Origin: a virus
Virus record (IMG/VR): IMGVR_UViG_3300021090_000010
Coordinates: 1-64,000 of that record
Length of the DNA stretch: 64,000 nucleotides
Strand: one strand, 5' to 3'
Shown one piece after another: positions 24,189 to 53,705 of this stretch (within the stretch, counting starts at the first letter, position 1; each line of letters opens with the position of its first letter). The position numbers were made by a program, and so were the translations under genes. The notes beneath the pieces are model-generated. The model was not told the DNA's origin. It saw nothing but the letters and a program-made list of their open reading frames with translations, and ran no database searches.

Positions 24189-24646
24189 TAATTGTGTATC
24201 CGAACGCTATTCTGAATGAGCGCTCGAAGGAAGTCAAAGTCCTAGATTTCGAAGACGAAGAACTTCAAGCGATCATTCAGGTAATGCTCGGAGAGTTGGC
24301 TGAATCTGGAGGGGTTGGCATCGCCGCCCCACAGATCGGCTCTCTACGTAGGATCATAATTGTTGATGAACATGCTGGTACGGCTCTGTCGAAACCATTA
24401 GTCATGTTAAATCCCAGGATCAAAAAAACTAGCAAGAAATTCGAACAGGTTATCGAGGCTTGTTTATCTCTTCCAGGACGTAGATTCAGAGTTCACCGCG
24501 CCAAATCTCTATGGTATTCGTATACTACGTTGACCGGAGATCATAAGATTGCAGTTGCTGACGGGCTCAAGGCCCAAATCATCATGCATGAAGTAGACCA
24601 CTTGGACGGCATCACGATTGCTGACAAAGGAACAGAAGTACTATGA
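24185..24646 (+). CDS. def: Peptide deformylase
   Basis: A 153-residue enzyme that removes the formyl group from N-terminal Met. Motif 1 is GVGIAAPQIG (43-52), motif 2 is EACLS (91-95, Ala in place of the usual Gly) with Cys93, and motif 3 is IIMHEVDHLDG with His135, Glu136 and His139. All metal ligands and the catalytic Glu are present, so it should be active. The ATG overlaps the stop of the upstream gene. Phage deformylases are known from cyanophages; this one is slightly shorter than the bacterial enzyme. Confidence 0.9.
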   Translation: MIIVYPNAILNERSKEVKVLDFEDEELQAIIQVMLGELAESGGVGIAAPQIGSLRRIIIVDEHAGTALSKPLVMLNPRIKKTSKKFEQVIEACLSLPGRRFRVHRAKSLWYSYTTLTGDHKIAVADGLKAQIIMHEVDHLDGITIADKGTEVL

Positions 24647-25119
24647 AAATCAAAAGAGAAGATTTCAAGGCATTGATCAAAGAATGTCTGATTGAAATCC
24701 TGTTAGACGGAAGCACCACCATGACTAACCCGGGTCGTGCCCATCTTCCACAAAAAGAAGCTGTCAGAGAGTCTACAAGAGTTGCACTTCCGTCCAGACA
24801 GCAAGAAGACGATCTCCCTGAGGGAATTCCAACTCCTTTGAAGTCGTTGTTTAGCGATTCTCGACGTCGAGCCGCCGACAAAATGTACCAAGATTCGATC
24901 CAGGCTGAAAAACAGGGAGAAGTTCTCGGAGAAATGGCTTCTACGTGGGATAAGATGACATTCGGAGACACACCGCTTCCTTCTAGGGCAACAGATCCAT
25001 ACTCTCACATCACCCGTACCCAATCTACAGGTCCTATGGAAGTTGGTCAAGATAACGACTACGACGATGGGTTTGACCCATACGAAGCTGTAAAAGCAGC
25101 CTCTCGTTCACGCCGATGA
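24643..25119 (+). CDS. Hydrophilic protein with targeting-like N-terminal helix
   Basis: A 158-residue protein whose ATG overlaps the deformylase stop. The N-terminus MKIKREDFKALIKECLIEIL fits the recurrent helix pattern, with LIE as a possible processing site. The rest is polar, rich in Ser/Pro/Asp/Arg, with no obvious fold (DDGFDPYEAVKAASRSRR at the end). Location in the head operon supports a core or internal head protein. Function is not recognised. Confidence 0.5.
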   Translation: MKIKREDFKALIKECLIEILLDGSTTMTNPGRAHLPQKEAVRESTRVALPSRQQEDDLPEGIPTPLKSLFSDSRRRAADKMYQDSIQAEKQGEVLGEMASTWDKMTFGDTPLPSRATDPYSHITRTQSTGPMEVGQDNDYDDGFDPYEAVKAASRSRR

Positions 25120-25178
25120 GCGACTTGTCGTTACCTTTTGCTAGAACTGCATAATTAACGGATGGGAAGGTTTACCAG

Positions 25179-25445
25179 ATGAATCGCAAGACGTTGACTC
25201 CTGATATGCTCCGCAAGATCGTCCTCGAAGAGATGGCGAAGCTTCACGAAGAAAAGAAACTGAAATCTGTCGAAGATAAAGCTAAGGAGACGAAGGAGCT
25301 TAAGGATGGCGGCGATTACGCTGACACCCTCGCGTCACACATCGACATGCTCAAGGCACTCAAGGTTGAAGAAACCAAACTTCGCCTTCGGTTGAAGTCT
25401 CTCGACGAGCGCAAACAAAAGCTTATTCGCAAAATTTCTGAGTAA
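25179..25445 (+). CDS. Small coiled-coil protein with targeting-like N-terminal helix
   Basis: An 88-residue, strongly charged, helical protein. The N-terminus (TPDMLRKIVLEEMAKLHEE) resembles the shared helix, and residues 50-88 form a coiled coil (HIDMLKALKVEETKLRLRLK). GGGAAGG lies about 12 nt before the ATG. It sits just upstream of the core and capsid genes, so a prohead core component is possible. Confidence 0.5.
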   Translation: MNRKTLTPDMLRKIVLEEMAKLHEEKKLKSVEDKAKETKELKDGGDYADTLASHIDMLKALKVEETKLRLRLKSLDERKQKLIRKISE

Positions 25446-25473
25446 TTGAACTGTTAGAGGAGAGGATAAGAAC

Positions 25474-26019: not shown

Positions 26020-26039
26020 CAAAGGCTGCAAGGACTTAA

Positions 26040-27797
26040 ATGAAGACCGTCTACGAAGAAGCTCTCAATGACATGAAGCAGTTGCGTGAAGTCGCGGAAG
26101 CGAATGCTCGCAACACTATCATCGACAGTCTCACACCCAAGTTGAAAGACCTCATTGAGAGAAACCTTTCCGGAAACACCGATGAAGATTCTCTTGATGA
26201 GAATGGATTCGCCGGAGGGTCACTTGGTTCGTCTCATCCAGAAATGACTGGCGCAACGTCAGGAACAGGACAGACGTCAGGTTCTGGTGGAGGAGAGGCA
26301 GGGGACGATTCTGAAAGTGACGAAACGACGAAAGAGTCGTTCGAAGTCAAGGACGAATCTTACGAACCTCTTTTCCATCTCTCTAAGCTTGCTGGACCTG
26401 CACTGATGGATAGAATCGTTGCAGAAGTCTATAAAACATACGATAACATAAACGAAGTCATTACTGGCGCTCGGACAATGAACTCTGACGAATTGAATAC
26501 CACAATTCGCAAAATTGAGGATATCTATTCATATCTACAGGAGAACAGTGTCGAGAACAAGCCCAAGCTCGAAGAGAAACTTGAGACCTGTTACGGATTA
26601 CTGAATTCCTTTAGGGAGTCGAAGATGAAGATGAAAGAACTCGTTTCTGAAGAGAAGGATGTTACCCTTCGTATTACCGGCCTCCCCGATGACGTCGAGC
26701 TTGAAAACCTCAACATCGATATCATCTCAGATGAGGATCCACTCGGTGATGAAGATGGACTCCCCACCGACGATATGGGTGCTCCTCCGGACGGCGGCGA
26801 GCCTCCTCCGGGCCCTCCGACCGTTCCTGGTATGGGCGAATCAGTCTATAGCGAAGGATCGGATGACAGCGAAGGATCAGATGACGATGAGAACGAAATT
26901 CTTCATGACGATACCGTCGTCGAAGTTTCTATTCCCATGCTTCGTAAAGCTATCGCCTCTGTGAAGGAATCGAAGAAGGGTAAGCTTCCTAAGACTCCCG
27001 GATCCAAGGGTGGAGTTGGAGCTGAAGTTCTCGATAACTTCGGTGGTGGCTCGTCTGAGGGCGATCCCTGGCTTGATAGCGATCTAGAACGTCTCGGCGA
27101 AGGTGAAGAGGACGAGGCCTGCGAAGGCGACGAAGTCGAAGAGCAGCAGAACCGCCGCATGCGCGACGACAAAGGTCGTGAGCAAGCTGATAATCATCTC
27201 AAGCCCGAGAGCATCGATCGTATGCTTACTATTGCTTCTAGTGACTTGAAAGAGTCGAAAGCATGGTATCTTAAGCATGTCGGAACTAAGAATGAAGCGA
27301 GCGCCCGCAAAGTCGTTGAGCGCGCCGCGAAACGCTTTGAGAAGATTAAAGAGCTCGCCAACAGGCGTCTCGGACCTTCTCTGAAAAAGATGGACGAAGC
27401 AGCTGCTAGGAATAAAGCTGTCCAGTCCGAGCTCGCTGAAAGTCGTCGGGAAGCTGACGGTTATCGCAAGCAGTTGGCAGAAGTTAATCTGCTCAACAGT
27501 AAGCTGATCCATGCAAATAAGCTCCTCCAACGCGACGGGCTGACCAAAAACCAAAAAGTAACGGTTATTGATCGGCTTGACGAAGCGATGAGTTTGCGAG
27601 AGGTGAAGCTAATCTACGGAAGTCTCACGAAGGCTTTCGAAGATGGTGATCAGGGAATGATCAGAGAAAACGTGTCTCGTCGGCCGAAAGCTGCGGGATC
27701 GTCGTCTAGAACGACCACGTCCTCAGAACGTCCCATCATCTCAGAGGGTATGGAGACTGCTCGTTGGCTCGAGCTCGCCGGCCTCTCTACTAAGTGA
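26040..27797 (+). CDS. Prohead core scaffold protein (gp22-like)
   Basis: A 585-residue, highly acidic, helical protein directly upstream of the major capsid protein, the position of T4 gene 22. It contains Gly/Ser/Thr- and Asp/Glu-rich stretches (GSGGGEAGDDSESDE; EGEEDEACEGDEVEEQQN) and a long coiled coil near residues 440-500. T4 gp22 is the main scaffold of the prohead, degraded by the protease. This protein is about twice as long as T4 gp22. Several L-x-E sites are compatible with cleavage. The assignment rests on position and composition. Confidence 0.7.
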   Translation: MKTVYEEALNDMKQLREVAEANARNTIIDSLTPKLKDLIERNLSGNTDEDSLDENGFAGGSLGSSHPEMTGATSGTGQTSGSGGGEAGDDSESDETTKESFEVKDESYEPLFHLSKLAGPALMDRIVAEVYKTYDNINEVITGARTMNSDELNTTIRKIEDIYSYLQENSVENKPKLEEKLETCYGLLNSFRESKMKMKELVSEEKDVTLRITGLPDDVELENLNIDIISDEDPLGDEDGLPTDDMGAPPDGGEPPPGPPTVPGMGESVYSEGSDDSEGSDDDENEILHDDTVVEVSIPMLRKAIASVKESKKGKLPKTPGSKGGVGAEVLDNFGGGSSEGDPWLDSDLERLGEGEEDEACEGDEVEEQQNRRMRDDKGREQADNHLKPESIDRMLTIASSDLKESKAWYLKHVGTKNEASARKVVERAAKRFEKIKELANRRLGPSLKKMDEAAARNKAVQSELAESRREADGYRKQLAEVNLLNSKLIHANKLLQRDGLTKNQKVTVIDRLDEAMSLREVKLIYGSLTKAFEDGDQGMIRENVSRRPKAAGSSSRTTTSSERPIISEGMETARWLELAGLSTK

Positions 27798-27836
27798 GTG
27801 GTTATCTGAAGTCTGATTGATATTAGGAAATTAGCG

Positions 27837-29747
27837 ATGAAGAATTTTGATCTCAAGGCGTTGACTGAAAATATGCAGCAACGCAACATGAAGACGGAGC
27901 GTACTGCTCTCGTCGAGAAGTGGTCCAAGACGGGCCTTCTTCGTGGCCTCGATGGTCTCCGTCGGGAGTCAATGGCGCAGCTTCTGGAAAACCAGTGCAT
28001 GCAGCTCCTGCGTGAAAGCGTGGGTATCTCCGGTGGTGCAGCCGGTCTTTCGAACTCTGGTCAGCTCGCTGGTTTCACGACCATCGCGTTCCCGATCGTT
28101 CGTAGAGTCTTCGGAGCGCTCGTTGCTAACGAGCTCGTCTCCATCCAGCCCCTGAACCTTCCTCAAGGTCTTGTGTTCTACCTTGACTACACCTACGGCA
28201 GCAATGTCGGTGGTGACGCGGGTCTCACCCTTCTGAACGGCTCTACCAATGAGACGTATTCACGGGGTCAGTCCATCTTCAACAGCCCTGCAGGCCGCGG
28301 CGTTCAGTCCGGTTCGTTGGCTGTCGGTGGTATGTACGACCTCGTTGGTGCCGGTTACAGCCGGGTTCATCGTCAAGCGGCGACTGTGTTCGTTGCTCCC
28401 GGTGATATCGGTGCATTCATCGGAGCCAACGAAGCTTGGTCTTCGGGTTCGATCGTTACCGCTGGTACGCAGTTCACGGGCACTGTCGCTCGCCTCTGTG
28501 GCTTCGACGGCAAGCTCGAGACTGATCTCACGGCTAACACCCTCGACTTCACGTTCATGCACGTTCGTGCTGCTGAAATCACGGGTACGATGCTCGGCGC
28601 AGATATGCTCTCACCAGAACAGCTCGCAGTTACAGCCTTCGGGTTCGGTAACGGGGGTGTGGTCGCCTGGGGTGAGCAATATCAGGCTGGTGGCGGCGTT
28701 CTCAACCTCCGTCGCCTTAACAAGCGCGGCAACTGGGACGGCACAACCTTCACGCCCTCGCCACTCAACGGAACTCACGTCCAGTGCGTTCTTCGAGTGA
28801 CCAACGGCGGTGTCACTCCTCCCCTCGGTGTTGGCGCAGCTGCTGCAAACAACACGATGTCGATGGTTATCAGCGATGCTCTGAGCGTTGACGGTGGAAC
28901 CGGCTCAGCTCTCACGGTACCCTCGTTCGAGTCCGATTTCGGTGCGACTCCTTCGCCGGCGATCCCTGAGATCGATATGAAGATCGAGCAGATCTCCATC
29001 GGTACTACGACCCGTAAGCTCCGCGCTCGCTGGTCTCCCGAACTCGCTCAGGATATGAACGCTTACCTCTCGCTCGATGCAGAAGTTGAGCTTACTCAGA
29101 TCCTGTCTCAGCAGATCTCGCTTGAAATCGACCGTGAAATCCTTTTGGATCTCCTGTCGCAGGCCTCTGGTGCGAACTACTACTGGAGCCGTTCTCCTGG
29201 TAAGTTCGTCAACAAGGTCACCGGCGCGACTGCCAACCTCGCTTCTTCGCTCTCTCCTGGTCCGAACTTCACTGGTACAGTCCGTGAGTGGTACGAAGTC
29301 CTCGTCGAAACGATTATCGACGTTGCTAACGAGATTCACCAGAAGACGCTTCGTGGAGCCGCGAACTTCGTGGTCTGCGGACCTGACGTCTCGACGATGT
29401 TCGAAAGCACGGTCCTTTACCGGCCCAAGCTGTCGATCGACTCGGATGGCCAGGTGGGTGTGCCCTTCTCGCTCGGAACCGATCCAATCGGTACTCTGAC
29501 GAACCGGTTCACCGTCTACAAGGATCCGTACTTCCCCCGCGCCAAGATTCTGATTGGCTACAAGGGATCTCACTACCTTGAGACCGGGTATGTGTACGCT
29601 CCGTACATCCCGCTCATCGTGACTCCGACCCTCTTCGCTCCTGAGGACTTCACTCCGCGTAAGGGCGTCATGACTCGCTACGGCAAGAAGATGGTCCGAA
29701 GCGATTTTTATGGAAGCGTGAGCGTGATGGACATGAACATCATTTGA
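27837..29747 (+). CDS. Major capsid protein (gp23-like)
   Basis: A 636-residue protein after protease and core genes, in T4 order. The N-terminal 60 residues are helical and charged and end QCMQLLRESVGISGG, a good prohead-protease site (LLRE/SV), as in the cleaved delta region of gp23. Family-like segments follow: FPIVRRVFGALVANELVSIQ PLNLPQG in the N-lobe, DVANEIHQKTLRGAANFVVC and KILIGYKG in the C-lobe. Codon use looks more GC-rich and C-ending than its neighbours, as expected for the most abundant protein. Three terminator-like hairpins follow within 0.8 kb. Confidence 0.9.
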   Translation: MKNFDLKALTENMQQRNMKTERTALVEKWSKTGLLRGLDGLRRESMAQLLENQCMQLLRESVGISGGAAGLSNSGQLAGFTTIAFPIVRRVFGALVANELVSIQPLNLPQGLVFYLDYTYGSNVGGDAGLTLLNGSTNETYSRGQSIFNSPAGRGVQSGSLAVGGMYDLVGAGYSRVHRQAATVFVAPGDIGAFIGANEAWSSGSIVTAGTQFTGTVARLCGFDGKLETDLTANTLDFTFMHVRAAEITGTMLGADMLSPEQLAVTAFGFGNGGVVAWGEQYQAGGGVLNLRRLNKRGNWDGTTFTPSPLNGTHVQCVLRVTNGGVTPPLGVGAAAANNTMSMVISDALSVDGGTGSALTVPSFESDFGATPSPAIPEIDMKIEQISIGTTTRKLRARWSPELAQDMNAYLSLDAEVELTQILSQQISLEIDREILLDLLSQASGANYYWSRSPGKFVNKVTGATANLASSLSPGPNFTGTVREWYEVLVETIIDVANEIHQKTLRGAANFVVCGPDVSTMFESTVLYRPKLSIDSDGQVGVPFSLGTDPIGTLTNRFTVYKDPYFPRAKILIGYKGSHYLETGYVYAPYIPLIVTPTLFAPEDFTPRKGVMTRYGKKMVRSDFYGSVSVMDMNII

Positions 29748-33434: not shown

Positions 33435-34214
33435 ATGATACTACAAGTGGTAGAGTTCGACATCGTAAGAACATCACGTTCGAAACACATCAAAAAGAAA
33501 GAAATTCTTTACTGTTGCGACCAGTGCGGCAAAGAATTTCGAGGAAAATACCAAAAATCTCTTTTAGAGAGTTCACGCAAGCATCACTTCTGTTCTAGAG
33601 AGTGCCATTTTTCTTCGAAAGAAGTAGGAGGATTGACGTACACAGAAGTGATGTCATGCCGAGACCAGATTATGTGGCAAACAAAAATGAAAGTTACTGT
33701 TGTAGCCAAATACGGTGTCGAGAATGTTTCTCAGCTAGAAGAGATCAAGAAACAGAAGGAAGAAACGTGTTTGAAAAATTACGGGGTGCGGAATCCGAAT
33801 CAAAATCCAGAAATTAAACGCAGAGCAATCAAAACACTTATCAAAAATCGTCCCGAAAGTTGGATTTCTAAACCTGAACATCTTTTTGGTTTGTATCTAA
33901 AAGAATGGTTTGGAGAAAGCGATGTCTTACAGCAGGTCTACTTCGAAAGAAGGTGGTCTGTAGACTTCTACGTCAAGTCGATCGATACTTATGTGCAGTT
34001 TGATGGTGTCTACTGGCACGGCCTAGACCGACCAATTGAAGAAATCAAGAAGTTTAAAACAGTGACCGATCGAGACATTTACGAAAAATGGACCAAGGAT
34101 AGAGAGCTAGACTCTGTTACTTCTGACAAGAACATTCGCCTCGTCAGGATAACAGATGTCGAATTCAAACAAGATCCACAAAAGTGTGTTGAGAAAGTGA
34201 GACGAAATGTCTAG
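33435..34214 (+). CDS. Vsr-like homing endonuclease with zinc ribbon
   Basis: A 259-residue protein. Residues 25-60 form a zinc ribbon (YCCDQCGKEF, then HFCSRECHF). Next come repeats typical of DNA-binding linkers (KYGVENVSQLEEIKKQ; NYGVRNPNQNPEIKRR). The C-terminal nuclease core (RRWSVDFYVKSIDTYVQFDG, then VYWHGLD) matches the enzyme at 5798-6217, and IRLVRITD follows. It sits between two neck genes and overlaps the gp14-like gene. This is the fuller form of the Vsr-like/EDxHD class in this phage. Confidence 0.65.
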   Translation: MILQVVEFDIVRTSRSKHIKKKEILYCCDQCGKEFRGKYQKSLLESSRKHHFCSRECHFSSKEVGGLTYTEVMSCRDQIMWQTKMKVTVVAKYGVENVSQLEEIKKQKEETCLKNYGVRNPNQNPEIKRRAIKTLIKNRPESWISKPEHLFGLYLKEWFGESDVLQQVYFERRWSVDFYVKSIDTYVQFDGVYWHGLDRPIEEIKKFKTVTDRDIYEKWTKDRELDSVTSDKNIRLVRITDVEFKQDPQKCVEKVRRNV

Positions 34215-34848
34215 GTTGTTTGTTACCCAGAAAGAAATTAATTTCATTTCTGACATTACAAAAGAGCTTCTCAAAGACATTATTGGGCAGAAAATCATCC
34301 TCTACCCTATTTCTGAGATCAAGTCAGACGTTCATGGTTTATACAACGAGAGCACGAACAAAGTCTACGATAACCCGATAGAAATAGAAGCGTTGGTAAA
34401 TTCTCCCGAACAAACGTCAATGTCCAACCTGTTCGGTCCTGAAAAACTGCAGAAGTTGGAAGTGTACGTTCACTACAGAGATCTCCTTGATAAAAAGATC
34501 GATATCTCCATCGGAGACTTTCTCCAGTACGGTGGAGCATTTTTCGAAATTTCTGCCGTTGACAAGATGAGGCAGATCTACGGTCAGGCAGAGCAAATAG
34601 ACGGATACAAACTCATATGCACGCAGGCTCGTAAAGGCCAATTCGTCACAGAACGTATTAGCCCCACCGATGAACCACCTGAGATGATTCAGAAAGAGTT
34701 CGTGCAACAAAGGGGTCTTCCTATCGTGGACGACAAACCTACGGGTGACAAGAGAGCTCTCCAGGAAACTGGCCAACTCGATCGCCCCATCGATGGACCT
34801 GCTCGGATCATTGAAACTAACGAAGGGAGCACATTCTACGATGAATAA
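34207..34848 (+). CDS. Neck/head-tail connector protein (gp14-like)
   Basis: A 213-residue protein. The start MSRLFVTQKEINFISDITKE and the segment ISIGDFLQYGGAFFEISAV resemble the neck protein family next to gp13 in T4-like phages. The C-terminus is Pro/Asp-rich (RPIDGPARIIETNEGS). The ATG overlaps the upstream endonuclease by 8 nt, evidence that the endonuclease was inserted tightly between neck genes. Role: connector between head and tail. Confidence 0.68.
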   Translation: MSRLFVTQKEINFISDITKELLKDIIGQKIILYPISEIKSDVHGLYNESTNKVYDNPIEIEALVNSPEQTSMSNLFGPEKLQKLEVYVHYRDLLDKKIDISIGDFLQYGGAFFEISAVDKMRQIYGQAEQIDGYKLICTQARKGQFVTERISPTDEPPEMIQKEFVQQRGLPIVDDKPTGDKRALQETGQLDRPIDGPARIIETNEGSTFYDE

Positions 34849-35188
34849 CCTTACGATAAGAGAAATTCGATCGATAATTAGGTCGATTCTTAAAGAAATG
34901 AAGCTAGGATTAGCCTCATACCGAATGGATCCACCTGAAGCTCTGCCTGATGAGAAGCAGACATTTTTGAAACAAACTCATCCACCTGCTCAATTCAATC
35001 CCACCGTACCGATGCGTAAACACAACGATTGGAAACGTAATTGGTCGGCTACGGCTGTCAGTAATCCCATGATGAATTTCCAGCACTTCGTGGCAGATGA
35101 TGATACGGATCCACTTTCTGACGAAGATTGGGAAATGATGACGGATCTAGCAAATATCAGCCATGATTCTGAACCAAAACGAAGATGA
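34841..35188 (+). CDS. Small protein with targeting-like N-terminal helix
   Basis: A 115-residue protein starting MNNLTIREIRSIIRSILKEM, one of the clearest copies of the shared helix (ILKE as potential cleavage site). The rest is polar and Pro/Asp-rich (MDPPEALPDEKQTFLKQTHP). It overlaps the neck gene by 8 nt and the next gene by 4 nt. The upstream extension of the frame to 34745 is a shadow. Probably a head-packaged or neck-associated protein. Confidence 0.5.
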   Translation: MNNLTIREIRSIIRSILKEMKLGLASYRMDPPEALPDEKQTFLKQTHPPAQFNPTVPMRKHNDWKRNWSATAVSNPMMNFQHFVADDDTDPLSDEDWEMMTDLANISHDSEPKRR

Positions 35189-36381: not shown

Positions 36382-36458
36382 TTCTACGGGCAGCCTCTTG
36401 GGACTTCCAAAGCTGGCGCGTATAGTTATATGTGGGAGCTAATCTTCGAAGGAGCACC

Positions 36459-39400: not shown

Positions 39401-39467
39401 GACCAGAGCGATTGAAAAGATCGGTATCGACTTTATCATAACAAACAGCGGCGTGGATTTTATCTAG
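36459..39467 (+). CDS. Contractile tail sheath protein, copy 1
   Basis: A 1002-residue sheath. The ATG at 36459 follows GAAGGAG; the GTG at 36432 is less likely. Sheath landmarks are SPGFFEQEIDRS and GTPAGVISTSNKGPAFVPV at the N-terminus, DYAAKMVREYGLALYVMDIP and YPWYAPAGFNRASL in the C-terminal core, then LNRVNVRRLVIEVKRQI and the terminal PTRAIEKIGIDFIITNSG. It is longer than T4 gp18 (about 660), implying additional surface domains. A second sheath gene follows at 39741. Confidence 0.92.
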   Translation: MAEQAFRSPGFFEQEIDRSILQDVVPTGTPAGVISTSNKGPAFVPVTVSSMADFRGKFGDLDVKKFGPYAANEFLKHRSALTFLRLLGAGTLSTTADITLFKTTGQVKNAGFNVTGTVVGNGERRHNGCTQLVTARHTLQTNEAFGMPMFTNNESFVGSTVNLVRGVVMLTSGTRLMVLDGNENALGVFNGLGPDDVGTVSGGTFKLVLSSTLGAAWSATDGIAGVKIFTASLNPTSDNYYAKLLNKDLDKFATELHVVYADFPVDDEVATPTAVGVLSGSANASNSSGNSTMTFRDALGHFDTKYTTPKTPNFISQPFGKTEYDLFRIEAIDDGEYANSLYKISITSLKRSSDQMNPYGTFTILVRAWDDDDSNPKVLEQFPNCSLNPALENYVARVIGDRRVYFDFESEQVADRRLVAKGKYANRSNLVRVVMTDEVDRAMVPPSALPFGFRGHSVLKTNDLLSDTGSTTGQRLAGTVGVGIASSTTGSIVPPIPFRFKITRGNLATSGFLGNPGTTTVTNMNYYWGVKFERNNSPLDSNTASEQNKIIQSFSKFAGIAQLDMLVTGSGADVQNNNKFTLAKVAFFNQSVVDLTGTVETHMKEAAYVRDATPDPTTYTVNDGTISTRITFATLAAMTGSSDFNRFSPAMKFSTFLQGGFDGLNILDKASRRMNDRSVSFDTGGGASTTYVSPGLAQNQGGSGATNSSVFSIKTAIDIMTNKLNVNLNILTIPGIRDPYVTDYAAKMVREYGLALYVMDIPSYDDTNVRLYDDSVTRPDITNTAKNFDSRALDNNYTATYFPDVIADDAVNSRRVKVPASVAALAALALNDRVAYPWYAPAGFNRASLEFVKNVAVRLNGSDRDILDDARINPIAPFPPRQFVIFAQKTLQQANSALNRVNVRRLVIEVKRQIVDIANRMVFEQNTPEVRNKFVSDVSIRIGLIQTQFGVESYQVIMDERNNSERDALDNRVNGSIEIKPTRAIEKIGIDFIITNSGVDFI

Positions 39468-42700: not shown

Positions 42701-42821
42701 GACCTCGCAGATCGATATCGAGAACAACACGATTCGAGGTAAGATCTTCGTGGTTCCGACCAGAACGATCGAATTCGTCACTCTTGACTTCATCATCACC
42801 AACCGCGCAACCGGAGGCTGA
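39741..42821 (+). CDS. Contractile tail sheath protein, copy 2
   Basis: A 1026-residue paralog of the sheath at 36459. Matching blocks are GIPAAVIGTAVKGPAYVPV, RFDALYIMDILEYDTVNTV, HPWFAPAGFTRGAL, LDRVNVRRLLIEIRRQV and PTRTIEFVTLDFIITNRATG. The two copies differ strongly in the central surface domains but keep the core. Both frames are intact, so a mixed or two-zone sheath, or alternative sheaths, is possible. It is directly followed by two small helix-tagged genes. Confidence 0.92.
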   Translation: MGQTKFGSAGVSTREVDLSGPTQASPVGIPAAVIGTAVKGPAYVPVTIGLLSDFYAKFGKSDGKKFAPLAAVEWLRNAQSLTFLRVLGVGDGSKRTTSGVTAGKVASAGFVVGEQQPNDAGILAQNPYANPGGPLGRTYFIGCFMSESIGSTVFSAAGLQGTGSITPGISSSLPIVRGMLMAASGVILRLSSSQTGSLGGSLLGDSAAPASTFVASDAFSSGSQLGAVILLENSQAKQQFTMLLNGHKGLDARYPNVLSASFDITAPNYFPNVFNTDPYKLQQAGHYLYAYWDIHPTLAVVTGTGLISGSQGANGTATRKSGTEAAAFLTTGSLGRDVGSATVPDYENFEDRFRHAVTPWIISQKFGGSPANLFRIHALDDGTGVSVAIKISIENISPAVNASDLYGTFDLVVRDWADSDSAPRIFETFRGATLNPSSDRFIGKLVGDQNVYFDFDKTTASQKLAIEGNYPNRSNYIRVELDTSVDSGESNPVGLPMGFRGPAHLVTSGSAPLTSPTELTNELIVNGALKRAVQPPVPYRQSVADGSADKKLANSLLYWGVQFEQVNTIDTPNSTNSKNESIKSFAKYMPDFMVSTMDVVEGGQIGASATAANGIVDADRFNYNRFSLENVLVVTGSDTLADTQKWEQARYVRSGLISADEPNKTRALTVNDLATPSNRRFAKFTTFMQGGFDGTNIFDQNESELTDVAVKGDMDDSNRGLTLGPSVSAYLKALAVIRNKSDVDVKLLAIPGIRQSVVTDTAVSTIEDRFDALYIMDILEYDTVNTVVTSSIQSPSVTNTTIAFKNRALNTSFAAAYYPDVVVQDPNTRTNVVVPPSVVVLGAFSLNDRIAHPWFAPAGFTRGALSTTNEAKVRLSKDNLDTLYDANINPLVAFPSTSPPGTQAQGGVVVWGQRTLYQLASALDRVNVRRLLIEIRRQVRDVGNTILFEPNRESTLARFSSAVEPKLAKIRKQFGLTNYKVQIDATTTSQIDIENNTIRGKIFVVPTRTIEFVTLDFIITNRATGG

Positions 42822-42824: not shown

Positions 42825-43196
42825 ATGAAGTTCAGCGAGTCCGAACTTAGGAAGTTGATTCGTGAAGAATTGGACGGAAAGAAAAATCCGCTCGCTCAAA
42901 CAAATCAGCTGCTTCCTCCAAGGGAAGATTCTGAAACGCGCCTGAAGGCATCTCCCAACCGAGGTCCTGCAGAGTCTGGCCCGCTAGATCTGTCATCTGT
43001 GATCGATCTAGTAGACGCCGTGACCGAGCAGGTATCGACTCTTCTGCTGAACAGCACTCAGTCGACCGAAAATGAATGGACCAACATGGAAGTATCAAAT
43101 AGGATCTCCAACAGGATCATGAAAGCCATTCGGCTTGAGGTCAATCTCATCACCCGTGAGCTCGAAATGGAAGATAAAGATTTCGGCGAATGGTAA
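42825..43196 (+). CDS. Small protein with targeting-like N-terminal helix
   Basis: A 123-residue protein starting MKFSESELRKLIREELDGKK, three bases after the sheath stop. After the helix come a Pro/Glu-rich linker and a helical domain (DLSSVIDLVDAVTEQVSTLL). It overlaps the next gene by 7 nt. The helix is of the recurrent class; LIRE/E is a possible processing site. No known domain. Confidence 0.5.
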   Translation: MKFSESELRKLIREELDGKKNPLAQTNQLLPPREDSETRLKASPNRGPAESGPLDLSSVIDLVDAVTEQVSTLLLNSTQSTENEWTNMEVSNRISNRIMKAIRLEVNLITRELEMEDKDFGEW

Positions 43197-43528
43197 AAAA
43201 CGAAAAGAACGATCTGAAACTCACCGAAACAGAGATTAGATCTGTCATTAGAGGCGAGCTTCGTCGTACTTTAACAGAGAGAACTTCACACGGCGGGCTC
43301 GAACTATCGATGCTCATCGGGGATGCGATGTTGGATGGTCTTAGGGAAATTGCTGTGCACGCAGCTCGCAATCCCGAGGTTCGAAAAGCCGTCGCTCTGG
43401 CCGAAGGTGCGGATGCTCGCAAGTTGGCAGAACAGATCGTCGGAGTGCTCCTCACGAAGGATCATGACTTTCGATCGGACTTGGTTTCTTTGGTTGTTGC
43501 GATGGTCAAACGTGCTCAAAAGGAATAA
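43190..43528 (+). CDS. Small helical protein with targeting-like helix
   Basis: A 112-residue protein. The shared helix is slightly internal: DLKLTETEIRSVIRGELRRT at residues 8-27. The remaining part is an all-alpha domain (GLELSMLIGDAMLDGLREIA, ending VVAMVKRAQKE). It is adjacent to the similar gene at 42825, and the two may be diverged tandem copies. Function is unknown. Confidence 0.5.
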   Translation: MVKNEKNDLKLTETEIRSVIRGELRRTLTERTSHGGLELSMLIGDAMLDGLREIAVHAARNPEVRKAVALAEGADARKLAEQIVGVLLTKDHDFRSDLVSLVVAMVKRAQKE

Positions 43529-44872: not shown

Positions 44873-45907
44873 ATGTCCCACAAGAAATTTAGGGAGTCCT
44901 ATTTCCATGTCGACAATCCGGAACTGAACAAGATTTCGAGTGGTGGTGTCGAACCTGTTCCAGGAGATGAAACTGGTAAGGATGAAAAACACAAAGAGGA
45001 TGAAACGATGACGATGGAAGATATTCGTCGAATTGTCAAACATACTCTTCAAGAAGTGATATCAGATCACGCTCGATTTGCTCAAAATTCATTCGATTCG
45101 ATGCAGGACCTCGCTGCTAAATTGCAGCAAGACCCAAAGAGCATTCCCATTCGGAAGGGAAAATACGACGAAGACTGGATTATCTCAGGAAAATTTCTTG
45201 GAATTCCTGAATTTATGAATGTCGACATCGTCTTCAGGAACAATGAAGTTCCTGAAGACGAAACATACGGGATGTACAAAAGTTCTAATCCGACAGATAG
45301 CTTCATAGGAAGAAGACTCTATGGGCAGACAACTAGTAAAGAACGTCTCAAAAATATCCCTAATATGCCAGAATCCCAACGCAAGTATGTGATACTCATT
45401 CCATATTCTCCTGAAGAAAAATTGTGGAGTTTGCAACGATTTGTGCGTGCGATGCCTCGATTGTTAGATGATGCTCATGAGACTTGGTTTCATGAAGTGG
45501 GTCATCTTATTACGGCCCGAAAAGTTCCTACTGGTCCTCATGTGAAACATTTTTTTACGAGAGGTGGCAGTGAGTTCGACTACGAGGAAATTGTAGGAAC
45601 TTTTATCCAGCAATTCGAGAAATTGTATTCGAAATATGGTGATCGCCCCGAAGCATTCTTACAGAAATTTCCAACTGTTGAAGTTCTTGTAAGCTATTTG
45701 AAACCGCAAGCAACAACACCAGCACAAGAAACAAATCCAGAATTTAGATTTCCTTGGGGCATGCACGCAAATATGCTTTTACGGGGTAGGGATCGCAAGG
45801 GAAAAAGAACGAAAGAACCGGATCGTAAAGCTGAGCTTGAACGAGCAGAAAAATGGTTTCGCAAACGAGCATTTCAAGTTTGGCAAGACCTTGGAGGTAA
45901 AAAATGA
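44873..45907 (+). CDS. Zincin metalloprotease-like protein with targeting-like helix
   Basis: A frame of 344 codons from 44873; a second start at 45009, preceded by AAAGAGG, would give 298 residues and place the shared helix (MTMEDIRRIVKHTLQEVISD) exactly at the N-terminus. A zinc-protease motif WFHEVGHLITARK (HEVGH) is clear, followed about 28 residues later by DYEEIVGTFIQQFE, where Glu could be the third ligand. If the helix is a capsid-targeting sequence, this would be a metalloprotease carried in the head. It ends overlapping the hydroxylase-like gene (ATGA). Family assignment beyond zincin is not possible. Confidence 0.6.
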   Translation: MSHKKFRESYFHVDNPELNKISSGGVEPVPGDETGKDEKHKEDETMTMEDIRRIVKHTLQEVISDHARFAQNSFDSMQDLAAKLQQDPKSIPIRKGKYDEDWIISGKFLGIPEFMNVDIVFRNNEVPEDETYGMYKSSNPTDSFIGRRLYGQTTSKERLKNIPNMPESQRKYVILIPYSPEEKLWSLQRFVRAMPRLLDDAHETWFHEVGHLITARKVPTGPHVKHFFTRGGSEFDYEEIVGTFIQQFEKLYSKYGDRPEAFLQKFPTVEVLVSYLKPQATTPAQETNPEFRFPWGMHANMLLRGRDRKGKRTKEPDRKAELERAEKWFRKRAFQVWQDLGGKK

Positions 45908-46395
45908 TTACAGCAATTCTAACTGTTGCTGCCATCGTAACGACAGATGCATTCGGATACTGGCTCCATCGAGCGCTACATCAGTCGTGGATGGGAGTTC
46001 TTCATAGAGCGCACATGATGCACCATCTCGTCCTTTATCCACCCACAAATTTCTCATCAGAAACGTATCGCGACGCGGGTAAGGATAATTCTACATGGAC
46101 GTTTCTTGCCATCGGACTTCCGCTGCTCTGCTCACCTCTTCTTCTTGCACTGTTCACCGATCTCATCGGATGGATGTCCGCTATTTGGCTAGTGCTTGTC
46201 ATCGGGGGTGTGGGACTCCTTCATAGCTTCATTCATGATTGGATCCATCTCAAGGCTCATTGGTTCCATTGGATTCTGGGAACGAAGAGGCTAATTAATC
46301 TGCACAAGATCCACCATGTCGACATGGGGAAGAACTACGGTATCTTCTCATTTTGGTGGGACAAACTGAATAAAACATTCGAGGACGTCAAATGA
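45904..46395 (+). CDS. Fatty acid hydroxylase / carotenoid hydroxylase-like membrane protein
   Basis: A 163-residue integral membrane protein. The histidine boxes of the di-iron hydroxylase superfamily are present: HRALH (22-26), HRAHMMHH (34-41), HDWIH and HWFHW in the middle, and LHKIHH near the end. Hydrophobic helices occur at residues 1-18, 60-85 and 90-108. Enzymes of this family hydroxylate lipids or carotenoids in the membrane. A phage copy suggests alteration of host membrane lipids or pigments (inference). Translationally coupled to the zincin upstream and the tagged gene downstream. Confidence 0.72.
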   Translation: MITAILTVAAIVTTDAFGYWLHRALHQSWMGVLHRAHMMHHLVLYPPTNFSSETYRDAGKDNSTWTFLAIGLPLLCSPLLLALFTDLIGWMSAIWLVLVIGGVGLLHSFIHDWIHLKAHWFHWILGTKRLINLHKIHHVDMGKNYGIFSFWWDKLNKTFEDVK

Positions 46396-46541
46396 AAATT
46401 CTAATATCAGAAGTTCGAAGCGCAATCAGGGTCCTGCTCCGTGAATCTGTCTGCCCTCGATGCGGAGATTCTGAAGCACACATCGGCTTACACGACATTG
46501 AATGTCCAAATCCAGATTGTAAATTGTATAACAAACGCTAG
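46392..46541 (+). CDS. Short zinc-ribbon protein with targeting-like helix, ends in amber codon
   Basis: A 49-residue frame overlapping the hydroxylase stop, with GAGG 8 nt upstream of the ATG. It starts MKILISEVRSAIRVLLRESV, the shared helix with the same LLRE/SV site as the capsid protein. A zinc ribbon follows (CPRCGDSEAHIGLHDIECPN, then PDC). The latter resembles the first ribbon of the protein at 53280 (CPGCNHPGAYIGGMNNVECP). The frame stops at TAG 46539-46541, but coding-like sequence continues in the same frame. Confidence 0.6.
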   Translation: MKILISEVRSAIRVLLRESVCPRCGDSEAHIGLHDIECPNPDCKLYNKR

Positions 46542-47462: not shown

Positions 47463-47495
47463 AATCCTCCTAGGTCGCAAAAGGCCGGGAGGATT
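47463..47495 (+). promoter_or_regulatory. Hairpin hiding the ribosome-binding site of the HNH gene
   Basis: AATCCTCC (47463-47470) pairs with GGAGGATT (47488-47495), which contains the Shine-Dalgarno sequence 5 nt before the ATG at 47498. Two further G-C pairs can form inside the loop. T4 homing endonucleases use a similar device to block translation from read-through transcripts. Confidence 0.65.
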
Positions 47496-47497
47496 TG

Positions 47498-48328
47498 ATG
47501 TTTAAGTGTCCGTTCGATGATTGTTCGTATGAGGGAAACCTTGATAATTCGTTTAGAGCTCATGTTCAACATCATCATAAGAAATCTGCAAAAGAATTAT
47601 GGGATGCCATCCACGGTCCCGGACTTTGTGGATGCCCTTGCAAGATTGAAACGAAATTCTGTGGGATAAAAAAGGGCTATAACCCGTTCATTCATGGGCA
47701 TGCTTCTCGCGTGAAAAATAATTTTGCCGGAGCTAATCCAGAAGAAAGAAACAAAAAGCTTAGTGAATCTCGCAAAAAGGCTTTTGCGAATGGGGAGCTC
47801 GAAGCATGGAATAAGGGTTTGACGAAAGAAGCTGACGAACGTATTGCCAAGTACGGTCAAAGTGGATCAATCGCGATTCTTTCAAATCCCAGTGAGGTCA
47901 AAAGACGATCTAAGTCTATGTCAGAAAATCGTAAGAGTGGGAAAGTTCCAACCCTTTATGGATCTGATCATTCTCAGTGGAAGGGAGGATATTCTCGGCT
48001 GGCTGGTTTGGCCCATTCACTTCTCTACAAATCCTGGAAGTTTCCCAAGCTCCAAGCAGCTAATTTCAAATGTTCTCGTTGCGAAACGACAGGAGATCTC
48101 CATGTCCACCATGATGGGGAGAGATTTGCTACGATCCTTCACGAAGCTTCAGATGAGTTTGGATTCACCGGTCAGGACGACTTCGCTTTGAAGACAAAGA
48201 TTGCTCAGAAAATTGAACAGATCCATCTAGAAAGAAACATCTCTGGCCTCGTTTTATGCGATAAATGTCATGATGCAGAACATGAGCGTCTTGGAGAGAG
48301 CTTCAACATTTTGAAGAGGGTCGTATGA
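47498..48328 (+). CDS. HNH homing endonuclease
   Basis: A 276-residue protein (MFKCPFDDCSYEGNLDNSFR). A C2H2-like finger (CPFDDCSY with HVQHHH) is followed by a Cys cluster (CGCPCKIETKFCG), NUMOD-like repeats (NKKLSESRKKAFANGELEAW) and a C-terminal HNH domain: FKCSRCETTGDLHVHHDGER, then LVLCDKCHDAEH. Its ribosome site is buried in a hairpin, consistent with tightly limited expression. It sits after the tail tube gene and overlaps the next gene by 4 nt. Confidence 0.75.
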   Translation: MFKCPFDDCSYEGNLDNSFRAHVQHHHKKSAKELWDAIHGPGLCGCPCKIETKFCGIKKGYNPFIHGHASRVKNNFAGANPEERNKKLSESRKKAFANGELEAWNKGLTKEADERIAKYGQSGSIAILSNPSEVKRRSKSMSENRKSGKVPTLYGSDHSQWKGGYSRLAGLAHSLLYKSWKFPKLQAANFKCSRCETTGDLHVHHDGERFATILHEASDEFGFTGQDDFALKTKIAQKIEQIHLERNISGLVLCDKCHDAEHERLGESFNILKRVV

Positions 48329-49116: not shown

Positions 49117-49133
49117 CCTAGTTATCGATTACG

Positions 49134-49436
49134 ATGAAGATCTCCCTGCAAGAATTTCGTGAGTTGGTGCGTTCTGTTTTGAAAGAAGCTGTACCTCCTC
49201 CGGCACCTACTGCCGCTCCTGCGGCGCCGGGTGCACCTCTTGCAGCTCCGCCGCCCGCCGCAGGAGCTCCTCCGGCCCCGGCCCCTCCGCAGGCAACTCC
49301 GGTGATCGCTGATCTGCAGGCTGTCGTAGCTGCCGTGACGAAAGCTCTGGGTTCTGCCCAAGATGCTTCGACCAAGCAAGTTCTAACGAACGTGAATAAG
49401 ACGCTTCAAACTCTTCTTCAGAACGTTCCGAAGTAA
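49134..49436 (+). CDS. Ala/Pro-rich protein with targeting-like helix
   Basis: A 100-residue protein beginning MKISLQEFRELVRSVLKEAV, one of the best matches to the shared helix (LKE/A). A 50-residue Ala/Pro linker follows (PPPAPTAAPAAPGAPLAAPP), then a helical end (IADLQAVVAAVTKALGSAQD). The build resembles a cleavable tag, a flexible linker and a small helical module. The opposite-strand frames are compositional shadows of the GC-rich linker. Confidence 0.55.
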   Translation: MKISLQEFRELVRSVLKEAVPPPAPTAAPAAPGAPLAAPPPAAGAPPAPAPPQATPVIADLQAVVAAVTKALGSAQDASTKQVLTNVNKTLQTLLQNVPK

Positions 49437-49437
49437 G

Positions 49438-50064
49438 TTAGATCTTCGACCACATCTTCCAGCGGGTGGTCACGTCGTCTCCTACGACACCTCGAACCAT
49501 GCCCAGCGCAAGAGCATGCATTCTCTTGTTCCCTTCAACACATCTGATTCCATCATCATGAGGAACCCAGATAGTTGTGCTAGGTTCTAGCATTGTTCGA
49601 TTGATTTCGGTGTCGTTCACATTAGAGAACATGTCCATCGTATGTTCGTCGGCGCACTGTTGGCTTGCCTGGTATTCTTTGGCTGTCGAGTAGAAAGGCT
49701 GACCCCAGACGTTCAAGGCTTTGATTTTGAACCAATCCGAATCCATGGAGTCGTGCTTCTGCCATTTGCTAGCACTGCAAAATCGACGTTCGGCAGTTTC
49801 GTCATTCGTCCCCAGATCGAATCCGAGCCAGTTCTGAGCCTCTCCTTTGCAACCGACTAGGCATGCAACTCTGATGTGGTTTTCAAGCTCATCCGAAAGG
49901 TTAGGATTATCAATGAGATGGCTGAGTCCCATGTTCCTCATCTTGTCCTCAACGTTTCGATCCTTCAAAAAGGATAGAACAACCTCTGGATTGTGGTCGG
50001 TAATCATCTCCATCTCTTCTTGTAAGACAGAGCGAACTAGTTTTCTTAATTCTTTGAGCTGCAT
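49438..50064 (-). CDS. Helix-tagged protein, possible ParB-like fold
   Basis: A minus-strand protein of 208 residues from the ATG at 50064 (MQLKELRKLVRSVLQEEMEM); an ATG at 50073 is an alternative. The shared helix is exactly N-terminal and LQEE is a possible processing site. Near the C-terminus, DGIRCVEGNKRMHALALG resembles the G-x-(K/R)R-x-x-A-L motif of ParB/sulfiredoxin-fold proteins, but the rest of that fold is not clear. A TACTTA motif lies 8 nt upstream of the ATG. Confidence 0.5.
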   Translation of the reverse strand: MQLKELRKLVRSVLQEEMEMITDHNPEVVLSFLKDRNVEDKMRNMGLSHLIDNPNLSDELENHIRVACLVGCKGEAQNWLGFDLGTNDETAERRFCSASKWQKHDSMDSDWFKIKALNVWGQPFYSTAKEYQASQQCADEHTMDMFSNVNDTEINRTMLEPSTTIWVPHDDGIRCVEGNKRMHALALGMVRGVVGDDVTTRWKMWSKI

Positions 50065-50072
50065 GGAATCCA

Positions 50073-50078
50073 TAAGTA
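50073..50078 (-). promoter_or_regulatory. TACTTA motif (minus strand)
   Basis: On the minus strand TACTTA ends 8 nt before the ATG at 50064 and overlaps the alternative ATG at 50073. This favours the 50064 start. Confidence 0.4.
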
Positions 50079-50096
50079 GTGTGCCCGAGAGCTTGC

Positions 50097-50102
50097 TATT
50101 TA
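50097..50102 (+). promoter_or_regulatory. TATTTA motif, candidate promoter
   Basis: TATTTA ends 20 nt before the ATG at 50123. TAAGGCAGG in between can act as ribosome site. Together with 50073-50078 it forms a divergent pair. Confidence 0.45.
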
Positions 50103-50122
50103 TCGGTAAGGCAGGCAAAAAA

Positions 50123-50449: not shown

Positions 50450-50452
50450 TTC

Positions 50453-50713
50453 ATGAAAGTCGGAGCTTCTTCAGAATACATGGGCCAGGAGCAGATTCGC
50501 CAGGCCTTGCAGAGTATCCTAGAAGATCGTGTCACTTCCGGACGAATTAAGAACCAGAAGGACTTGGATACTTTTTGGAGCGTGATCGATAAGGCTGCTC
50601 TAGCTCTACGCTCTGTTCCTTTCGAAGTTCTTTCCAAGGTTATGTCGGTCAAAGAGGTTCGAGAAATCGTTCGAGATGTTCTCGTAGAAGTCCAAAATAC
50701 ACCCTCTCGCTGA
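50453..50713 (+). CDS. Small helical protein with C-terminal copy of the shared helix
   Basis: An 86-residue protein (MKVGASSEYMGQEQIRQALQ), three bases after the membrane protein stop. It is all-alpha. The shared helix appears at the C-terminus instead of the N-terminus (VMSVKEVREIVRDVLVEVQN). This may mean a start at the internal ATG near 50642, or a head-binding helix that is not a cleavable leader. Function is unknown. Confidence 0.45.
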   Translation: MKVGASSEYMGQEQIRQALQSILEDRVTSGRIKNQKDLDTFWSVIDKAALALRSVPFEVLSKVMSVKEVREIVRDVLVEVQNTPSR

Positions 50714-50720
50714 CCTATCT

Positions 50721-51062: not shown

Positions 51063-51063
51063 G

Positions 51064-52059: not shown

Positions 52060-53275
52060 CAAGATCGTAACTGTGTCGGATTCTCCGTTCGAATCGAAAG
52101 GAATGAAAGTGGTCGAATCATCTTCCGAAAATCCCATCTCTCTTTCGAAGCACGATCGTGTCCAAAAACCGCTCAACGAGATGAAGGTTGCATTCGTCGG
52201 AAATTGGAAGATGGTGTGCGGAATTTCCACGTACTCCGAGAAACTGTGGCCGCACGTCATCGACGGTGTTGGTCATGCTAGGTTGTTCATCGAACGTAAC
52301 GACACTCCGACCGGACCTCTTCATCTTGTTGGAGATAGAACAGTCGCCGACGAAGATGTTGTAATCTGTTGGAAGCGTGGAGAAGATCTAAAAGAGCTTG
52401 TCAAGCGGATAGATGAATACGATCCGGATATCGTTTGGGTGCAGCACGAGTGGGGGCTTTGGTCCAATGCGCGCCACTGGCTATCGTTCCTTTCACAGAT
52501 GAGATCTCGAAGGGTCATCGTCACGATGCATTCCGTGTTCCACCATCGTGACAAGACGATCTGTGAAGCTGCGATGCCTGAGATCGTCGTTCATCTCGAC
52601 GGCGCGAAGAAAGTTCTCGATGATGAGAAGAAGATCTGCGGATCTGTTTCGGTCATTCCGCACGGCTGCGATCCGTGCCTGGACAGGAAGAAGCTCTGGA
52701 ACCTCTATAAGTCACCCAGAACCTTCATGCAATTCGGATTTGGTTTCCGGTACAAGGGTTGGGAGACGTCCCTGGAGGTGGCACGGATCCTCGCTGGCAG
52801 GTACGAGGATGCGTTTTTCACGGGGCTGTTCTCCGAATCGCCCTTCAATGCGACCGAACATCAGCTCTACTACGATGAGCTCATGTCGTTCGTCACTAAA
52901 CACGGATTAGAATCCAACGTTTCGATCATCAGAGGGTTCCAGTCCGTCGAGGTGCTGGACAGCTACATGCGCACCAACCAGGCTGTGCTGTTTCCGTACA
53001 CGTCCCACCCGAAGCACGAGGTGTACGGAGCTTCCGGCGCAGCACGTTCCGCTATGTCGAAAGCCGTGCCCGTCGTTACGACGTCCGTGAATCACTTCTC
53101 GGACATCCCAACCCTCAAGGCGGACGATCCCAAGTCCCTTGCAGAGATATTGGATAAGCTTTTCTCCGATCCTCTTATGAAGAAGAAGCAGGTCGACAAA
53201 CAGCTGAAGTACGTGGAAGAAAACAGCTGGTACAATGTAGCACAGCTCTATCTGAAGCTGTTTTCGAATAGTTAG
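52031..53275 (+). CDS. GT4-type glycosyltransferase
   Basis: A 414-residue protein. A Rossmann start MKVAFVGNWKMVCGISTYSE lies at residue 50, after a short N-terminal extension. GT-B features are DPDIVWVQHEWGLW, VTMHSVFHH, VIPHGCDP (hinge), FMQFGFGFRYKGWETSLEVA and the C-terminal site SHPKHEVYGASGAARSAMSK with E-x-x-G-A-S-G-A. Members transfer sugars from nucleotide sugars. Paired with the pyruvyltransferase-like gene, it forms a small glycan-modifying cassette. Confidence 0.82.
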   Translation: MVKYVGIRNDKIVTVSDSPFESKGMKVVESSSENPISLSKHDRVQKPLNEMKVAFVGNWKMVCGISTYSEKLWPHVIDGVGHARLFIERNDTPTGPLHLVGDRTVADEDVVICWKRGEDLKELVKRIDEYDPDIVWVQHEWGLWSNARHWLSFLSQMRSRRVIVTMHSVFHHRDKTICEAAMPEIVVHLDGAKKVLDDEKKICGSVSVIPHGCDPCLDRKKLWNLYKSPRTFMQFGFGFRYKGWETSLEVARILAGRYEDAFFTGLFSESPFNATEHQLYYDELMSFVTKHGLESNVSIIRGFQSVEVLDSYMRTNQAVLFPYTSHPKHEVYGASGAARSAMSKAVPVVTTSVNHFSDIPTLKADDPKSLAEILDKLFSDPLMKKKQVDKQLKYVEENSWYNVAQLYLKLFSNS

Positions 53276-53279
53276 AGTA

Positions 53280-53705
53280 ATGCAAGCCACCCTGAAAGAG
53301 TTTCGAGAAATTGTTCGGCGGGTGCTTTCTGAGGCTGTTTGTCCCGGATGCAATCATCCAGGTGCGTACATCGGAGGCATGAACAACGTTGAGTGCCCGA
53401 ACCAACAATGTAGGTTCTTTTCTCAGAAACAATTGATGAACCACGAAATCGAGCGCGACGCGTGGGATTGCCCACAGTGCGATCGAAAGAACATACCCAC
53501 AAAAGACTGGTCTTGTCCTGATTGTGGACATGATCCTCATAAAGACAATCCATGTGCTGGTTGCGGATCTCAAACTGCTAATCCGAATGATGAGTTTTGC
53601 GAATTGTGTGAACCAGATGATGGTAGCGGCGCGTTCGAATGTCCACAATGCAAACATCAAGGATACGATCCGAACGAACCTTGTCCAGAATGTGGATTCC
53701 ATTGA
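53280..53705 (+). CDS. Zinc-ribbon array protein with targeting-like helix
   Basis: A 141-residue protein starting MQATLKEFREIVRRVLSEAV, a clear shared helix (LSE/A). Then four zinc-ribbon-like units: CPGCNHPGAYIGG..ECPNQQC, DCPQCDRKN..SCPDCGHD, CAGCGSQT..FCELCE and CPQCKHQG..CPECGF. The first unit is paralogous to the 49-residue protein at 46392. Such arrays bind nucleic acids or proteins. If packaged in the head, it could enter the host with the DNA (inference). Confidence 0.6.
   Translation: MQATLKEFREIVRRVLSEAVCPGCNHPGAYIGGMNNVECPNQQCRFFSQKQLMNHEIERDAWDCPQCDRKNIPTKDWSCPDCGHDPHKDNPCAGCGSQTANPNDEFCELCEPDDGSGAFECPQCKHQGYDPNEPCPECGFH

What the first reader, a model, noticed from the sequence alone, without database searches (positions are those of the whole stretch)
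24643..53705. A family of unrelated proteins sharing a capsid-targeting-like helix
Seen: at least eleven proteins carry the same short helix, (L/I/V)R-x-(I/L)(V/I)R-x-(V/I/L)L-x-E. Examples: MKFSESELRKLIREELDG (42825), MKISLQEFRELVRSVLKEAV (49134), MQLKELRKLVRSVLQEE (50064, minus), MQATLKEFREIVRRVLSEAV (53280), MKILISEVRSAIRVLLRESV (46392), MNNLTIREIRSIIRSILKEM (34841), MTMEDIRRIVKHTLQEV (45009), TETEIRSVIRGELRRTLTE (43190), TIDSLKHLIRKQIAEAS (18386), weaker ones at 24643 and 25179, and a C-terminal copy at 50453. Everything after the helix differs: metalloprotease, zinc ribbons, Ala/Pro linker, helical bundles. Known: T4 internal proteins and Alt carry N-terminal capsid-targeting sequences cut by gp21 after (L/I)-x-E. 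This phage encodes a gp21-like protease (23176), and its major capsid protein has the same LLRE/SV junction as the 46392 protein. Inference: these are head-packaged effectors injected with DNA, a large modular cargo system.
Basis: partly seen in the sequence, partly recalled or inferred. Interest (0 to 1): 0.88.

Follow-up and report, generated by a model that had tools for sequence, protein, structure and literature searches.

The report
Shared phage-head loading tag, probable
Ten or so otherwise unrelated proteins of this uncultured T4-type phage begin with the same short helix; the same helix begins dozens of unrelated proteins in related phages, and it is most likely an address label that gets them into the phage head, probably for injection into the bacterium.

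Summary
The window belongs to a 121-kb virus record of the T4 superfamily (gp20, gp21/S77 protease, gp23 present). A matrix trained only on other phages ranks about ten window proteins at or above shuffled controls, plus a C-terminal copy at 50453; all lie at 18-54 kb. In six related genomes and the 484-kb phage LR756508.1 the same N-terminal helix, roughly QLRxIIRxVLxE, recurs on proteins whose bodies differ: 97 tagged proteins form 85 body families. Some bodies (NUDIX, a HAD-like protein) occur tagged in one phage and untagged in another. Glu at position 11 is enriched when not selected for (37/83 N-terminal against 9/101 elsewhere). Every tag-rich genome checked has an S77 protease; nine phages without one show only background. 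The tag's end matches the conserved cleavage junction of the capsid protein (LLRE|S), and it can be laid in register with residues mapped in the T4 capsid-targeting sequence. It is not T4's sequence, the residue after Glu is not conserved, and packaging, cleavage and injection are untested. Best reading: a new, longer class of capsid-targeting tag. 'Injected effectors' is plausible but unproven; two tagged families look like conserved prohead-core proteins instead.

The parts
18386..18445 (+). N-terminal tag MTDQKTIDSLKHLIRKQIAE of gene 18386-18976 (196 aa, C-terminal zinc-ribbon-like)
   Evidence: matrix 17.2; homologs with N-terminal helix beside the portal gene in 4 relatives
24643..24696 (+). 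N-terminal tag MKIKREDFKALIKECLIE of gene 24643-25119; family conserved between gp21 and gp22
   Evidence: family consensus near MKxTRxxLKxLVKECLVEILAEG in relatives
25179..25232 (+). Weak N-terminal tag MNRKTLTPDMLRKIVLEE of gene 25179-25445; small conserved family just upstream of the scaffold region
   Evidence: 35 homologs in capsid-gene flanks; family mean matrix score 4.1 against -3.4 for shuffles
34841..34897 (+). N-terminal tag MNNLTIREIRSIIRSILKE of gene 34841-35188
   Evidence: matrix 29.9
42825..42875 (+). N-terminal tag MKFSESELRKLIREELD of gene 42825-43196; no Glu at the in-register position
   Evidence: matrix 19.0
43190..43279 (+). N-terminal tag ending TEIRSVIRGELRRTLTE of gene 43190-43528 (LxE one turn further on)
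   Evidence: score 10.6
45008..45055 (+). N-terminal tag MTMEDIRRIVKHTLQE of gene 45008-45907 (HEVGH motif)
   Evidence: matrix 23.4; translation
46392..46445 (+). N-terminal tag MKILISEVRSAIRVLLRE of gene 46392-46541 (zinc-ribbon-like, 49 aa)
   Evidence: score 12.6; same LLRE|SV as the capsid-protein junction
49134..49187 (+). N-terminal tag MKISLQEFRELVRSVLKE of gene 49134-49436 (Ala/Pro linker)
   Evidence: matrix 26.5
50017..50064 (-). N-terminal tag MQLKELRKLVRSVLQE of gene 49438-50064 (minus strand)
   Evidence: matrix 30.4, best in the genome
50642..50689 (+). C-terminal copy MSVKEVREIVRDVLVE of gene 50453-50713
   Evidence: matrix 20.7
53280..53333 (+). N-terminal tag MQATLKEFREIVRRVLSE of gene 53280-53705 (zinc ribbons)
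   Evidence: matrix 22.6; weak double zinc ribbon match
23173..23781 (+). gp21-type prohead protease, the presumed processing enzyme
   Evidence: PF03420 Peptidase_S77, E=1.3e-21
28005..28019 (+). Predicted maturation junction LLRE|S of the major capsid protein (gene 27837-29747)
   Evidence: Gp23 PF07068 E=1.1e-68; Glu invariant in relatives
26040..27797 (+). Scaffold (gp22-like) gene, presumed docking partner of the tag (inference)
   Evidence: position directly before gp23; 79 homologs at the same place in relatives; no Pfam match

Best explanation
The helix is a capsid-targeting tag of a kind not described in the papers I could search. The N-terminal amphipathic helix of a new protein docks on the prohead core or scaffold while the T4-type head assembles, so that the protein is enclosed. 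The gp21-type protease then cuts after the Leu/Ile-x-Glu that ends the helix and frees the body inside the capsid, from where it can leave with the DNA. Shown by computation: a conserved, modular, mostly N-terminal tag, in phages that have the protease. Inferred, with falling confidence: docking in the head, cutting, injection.
For: N-terminal enrichment in the window, six relatives and LR756508.1. 97 tagged proteins in 85 body families; homologous bodies with and without tag. Unselected Glu 37/83 against 9/101, and Leu/Ile/Val two before it in 66/83. Same (L/I)xE at the capsid-protein junction and at T4 cleavage-type N-termini (gp24 LLRE|S, IPIII FIAE|A). All tag-rich genomes have S77, nine phages without it show background only. 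Pattern 26 in IMG/VR against 1 for its mirror image and 9, mostly chance, in 257 Gb of cellular genomes. Two tagged families sit between gp21 and gp22. T4 precedent: 10 N-terminal residues suffice for packaging (PMC9026906).
Against: No proteomics. The residue after Glu is not conserved. C-terminal copies (50453; G001) would keep the helix after cutting. 42825 lacks Glu in register. T4's targeting sequences score poorly on the matrix. Bodies are not uniformly basic as in T4 internal proteins (pI 4.6-9.5). Tagged genes are scattered over the genome in relatives. The S77 association could be shared descent.
Confidence: 0.65

Rival explanations
1. Docking helix that is kept: it tethers diverse phage proteins to one partner (scaffold, portal, or an intracellular assembly site), and cutting after Glu is incidental or absent.
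For: C-terminal copies exist; residue after Glu is free; the two conserved Arg and the hydrophobic face carry as much information as the Glu; 42825 lacks Glu.
Against: Glu enrichment at exactly the (L/I)xE position and its match to the capsid-protein junction need another reason.
Confidence: 0.2
2. Amphipathic helix that binds the host or virion membrane and localises proteins there.
For: Hydrophobic positions 1, 5, 8, 9 form one face; basic residues present.
Against: Fixed Arg at 2 and 6 on one side and Glu at 11 are not needed for membrane binding; two tagged families are prohead-locus proteins; restricted to S77 phages in this sample.
Confidence: 0.06
3. Family of paralogs: the tagged proteins descend from one gene and the bodies have diverged beyond recognition.
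For: 46392 and 53280 share a zinc-ribbon-like start after the tag; 24643, 25179 and 18386 are true families.
Against: 85 body families among 97 tagged proteins, including NUDIX and leucine-rich-variant proteins; the same body with and without tag.
Confidence: 0.04
4. Chance or composition: a common short helix over-read by eye.
For: Short amphipathic helices are common; single matches elsewhere in the record look like noise.
Against: Far above shuffles and the mirror pattern, with a matrix trained on other phages.
Confidence: 0.01

Closest known systems
T4 capsid-targeting sequence of internal proteins IPI/IPII/IPIII (MKTYQEFIAE|A) and gp21 processing
   Same: Short N-terminal element shared by otherwise divergent proteins of a T4-type phage with an S77 protease; ends in (L/I)xE; hydrophobic positions can be laid in register with T4 Y4, F7, I8, E10
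   Different: Longer (16-20 residues), two conserved Arg, no sequence similarity to the T4 element (matrix scores -3 to -8 for ipI-III); cargo not uniformly basic; packaging untested
Phage P1 DarB N-terminal packaging signal
   Same: N-terminal residues (30 sufficient) direct a protein to the capsid (PMC9024508)
   Different: Single protein system, other phage type, no S77 protease found in P1
SPN3US/phiKZ-type head propeptides
   Same: Several head and ejection proteins cut by the prohead protease; paralogs gp53/gp54 share identical N-termini (PMC5694885)
   Different: Mostly longer than 100 residues; not a motif shared by many unrelated proteins

Membership tests
T4-type capsid-targeting sequence (by function) | N-terminal element shared by several otherwise different proteins | tested here: met
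T4-type capsid-targeting sequence (by function) | (L/I)xE cleavage site at its end, in a phage with a gp21-type protease | tested here: met
   Unselected Glu 37/83 and Leu/Ile/Val 66/83; PF03420 in all tag-rich genomes checked. Presence of a site, not cutting, was tested; 42825 lacks it
T4-type capsid-targeting sequence (by function) | Sufficient to package a protein into the head | not testable with these tools
   Needs experiment
T4-type capsid-targeting sequence (by function) | Removed by the prohead protease in the virion | not testable with these tools
   Needs semi-tryptic virion proteomics
T4 internal-protein targeting sequence (by sequence) | Sequence similarity to MKTYQEFIAE | tested here: not met
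   T4 ipI-III N-termini give best matrix scores of -3.2, -8.2 and -8.4
T4-type internal (injected) proteins | Basic, DNA-associated bodies acting against host defence | tested here: inconclusive
   Body pI ranges 4.6-9.5; bodies tested have no homologs or families; function not tested

The most novel reading that the evidence does not exclude
A large, mostly uncultured branch of T4-type phages shares one short, portable head-docking code used by about 3 to more than 10 different proteins per genome, so that the internal and potentially injected proteome of any such phage can be read from sequence, including enzymes (NUDIX, HAD-like, kinase-like) gained and lost as cargo.
Probability: 0.5. Interest if true: 0.8.

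Novelty: new variant of a known kind. Interest (0 to 1): 0.66.

Why it matters
T4 internal proteins are known as a fast-changing set of injected counter-defence proteins joined only by their targeting sequence. A tag this conserved would let one list candidate head-packaged proteins, most without any annotation, across many uncultured and huge phages. It makes the question 'what do these phages inject?' testable, and offers a second, different address label for loading proteins into phage heads.

Tried and rejected
Two IMG/VR scans used patterns with a codon-spacing error; both gave 0 and are not evidence about the tag. tblastn with a 20-aa consensus tag found nothing. My first start-chooser picked wrong starts and undercounted; replaced. 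AlphaFold models of 49438 and 45008 without alignments were poor (mean pLDDT 35 and 45), so no fold search was made. Similarity of the tag to the gp22 scaffold and capsid-protein N-termini was tested: above the 95th percentile of shuffles in only about 20% of sequences, and absent for gp22 in the window, so scaffold mimicry is not claimed. A gp21 N-terminal LxE site is present in the window (LLTE|W) and T4 but not in most relatives. A shared kinase-like body between window gene 30599 and a tagged relative was not supported. T4 late promoter TATAAATA shows no enrichment. Chance and simple paralogy are rejected by shuffles, the mirror pattern and untagged homologs.

Full report
What the window is. 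The record is 121,042 bases. Its head module is of the T4 superfamily: portal gp20 with an intein, an S77 prohead protease (23173-23781) and gp23 (27837-29747). Its capsid protein is 55-66% identical to 80 IMG/VR relatives and far from named phages: 33% to Microcystis phage Mel-JY01, 41% to Flavobacterium phage immuto, 37% to Rhodothermus phage RM378, and 49% over 60% of its length to the 484-kb uncultured phage LR756508.1.

Is the helix there, and is it more than chance? Yes. Mechanical genes give 7 tagged N-terminal zones against 0.18 expected from shuffles, and no interior hit in 28,089 aa. Six relatives give 3-7 against 0.08-0.38 each; the weakest, G035, has 3 where the largest of 1,000 shuffles also has 3. 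LR756508.1 gives 10 against 0.21 in 60 kb around its head genes. A matrix made from 63 segments of other phages ranks eight window proteins at 17-30 where 2,751 shuffled ORFs reach at most 12.8; 46392, 43190 and 24643 lie near that limit. Over 2,008 genes of 14 genomes or fragments the matrix gives 92 N-terminal, 3 C-terminal and 12 other hits; the same genes shuffled give 5. That last count includes training sequences; the window result does not.

Which residues matter? To avoid circularity I searched only for [LIVFM]Rxx[IVL]R and left positions 7-12 free. At N-termini, position 9 is Leu/Ile/Val in 66 of 83 and position 11 is Glu in 37 of 83; elsewhere Glu is 9 of 101. Position 12 is not conserved. 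In LR756508.1 many tags run one turn further before the LxE. Synonymous codons differ between the window's tags, so selection is on the protein.

How specific is it? The DNA pattern for one common form has 26 stretches in IMG/VR; its mirror image has 1. Cellular species genomes (257 Gb) have 9, of which by inspection one, on a 3.9-kb contig, looks like the tag. Most of the IMG/VR contigs carry genes homologous to those of the seven genomes studied; many are fragments without head genes, so their protease status is unknown. G015 has no such homologs and its single match looks like chance. Among complete named phages a fixed-spacing search finds a cluster only in LR756508.1 (9 matches, mirror 2). 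Lambda, P1, T7, N4 and phiCbK have none; phiKZ, SPO1, G and crAss001 have scattered matches, several with in-frame stops, near the mirror count. The eight genomes measured as tag-rich, and G010, have S77; the nine phages without S77 do not show the tag. T4, RM378, immuto and Mel-JY01 have S77 but not this tag at this spacing, so the protease is not sufficient. The association could partly reflect shared descent.

Is it modular? 97 tagged proteins form 85 body families at E<=1e-5. Bodies also occur without the tag: a tagged NUDIX protein of G028 (PF00293, E=2e-20) has an untagged relative in G054 (E=2e-32), and a tagged protein of G063 with an FDFDET motif (HAD-like by inspection, no Pfam match) has untagged relatives in L106 and G035 (E=8e-32 and 6e-30). 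In the window, the bodies of 45008, 49438 and 53280 have no match in 50,697 phage records, and the first two none in IMG/VR. The tagged proteins have no Pfam or PHROG family worth naming except weak zinc ribbons.

How it probably works. In T4 the first 10 residues of IPIII suffice for packaging; residues 4 and 7 act in targeting, 8 and 10 in processing, and Asp at 10 blocks cutting but not packaging (PMC9026906). T4 internal proteins are described as diverse defence proteins joined only by a conserved targeting sequence (PMC3012670). Laid from the Glu backwards, T4 Y4, F7, I8 and E10 fall on tag positions 5 (Ile/Val), 8 (Val/Ile), 9 (Leu/Ile) and 11 (Glu). This is my alignment by eye, not a test, and the T4 sequences themselves score poorly on the matrix. 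The window's capsid protein is predicted to be cut at LLRE|S, conserved in relatives; 46392 ends its tag identically, and T4 gp24 has the same LLRE|S. The simplest mechanism is docking of the amphipathic helix on the prohead core, enclosure, and cutting at LxE. I put the tag as head address at about two in three; injection of the freed bodies follows from T4 precedent only.

What the tagged proteins are. 24643 and 25179 belong to families kept between the protease and the scaffold gene in relatives; their place suggests prohead-core proteins like T4 gp67/gp68, by position only. 18386 is kept beside the portal gene in four relatives. The rest are orphans. In relatives the cargo includes NUDIX, weakly kinase-like (ABC1/APH, below cut-off) and leucine-rich-variant proteins. 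Nothing shows that any acts on host defences.

What does not fit. The residue after Glu varies. The C-terminal copy at 50453 and one in G001 would keep the helix after cutting. 42825 has no Glu in register. In relatives tagged genes are scattered over the genome. These keep the rival of a kept docking helix alive.

Novelty. Searches of the open-access library found no description of this motif; subscription papers are not covered. I file it as a new variant of a known kind: it probably works like the T4 capsid-targeting sequence, is not a sequence member of it, and its packaging is untested.

Noticed in passing
19075-22233: The portal gene (gp20) carries a large intein with an HNH_3 domain (PF14890, PF13392).
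   Followed up: partly
17889-18365, 33435-34214, 47495-48328, 53726-54499: Several free-standing homing-endonuclease-like ORFs among the structural genes: GIY-YIG at 53726 (PF01541, E=6e-14), weak NUMOD3 at 17889; the others by inspection only.
   Followed up: partly
24170-24646: Peptide deformylase gene (PF01327, E=6e-39) inside the head module, next to the prohead protease.
   Followed up: no
45904-46395: Fatty acid hydroxylase / sterol desaturase-like gene (PF04116, E=7e-12) overlapping the start of the tagged gene at 46392.
   Followed up: no
36432-39467 and 39741-42821: Two tandem, similar-looking large tail-sheath-like genes; the second matches sheath C-terminal domain PF17482 weakly.
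   Followed up: partly
L101:680-1912 (minus): Tagged 410-aa protein of a related contig with leucine-rich-variant repeats and a YHGS stretch after the tag that recalls ADP-ribosyltransferases; by eye only.
   Followed up: no
73333-73521, 93463-93663, 86781-87005 of the 121-kb record (outside the window): Three short ORFs with borderline tag-like N-termini (scores 13.7, 15.7, 11.0), possibly further members or noise.
   Followed up: partly
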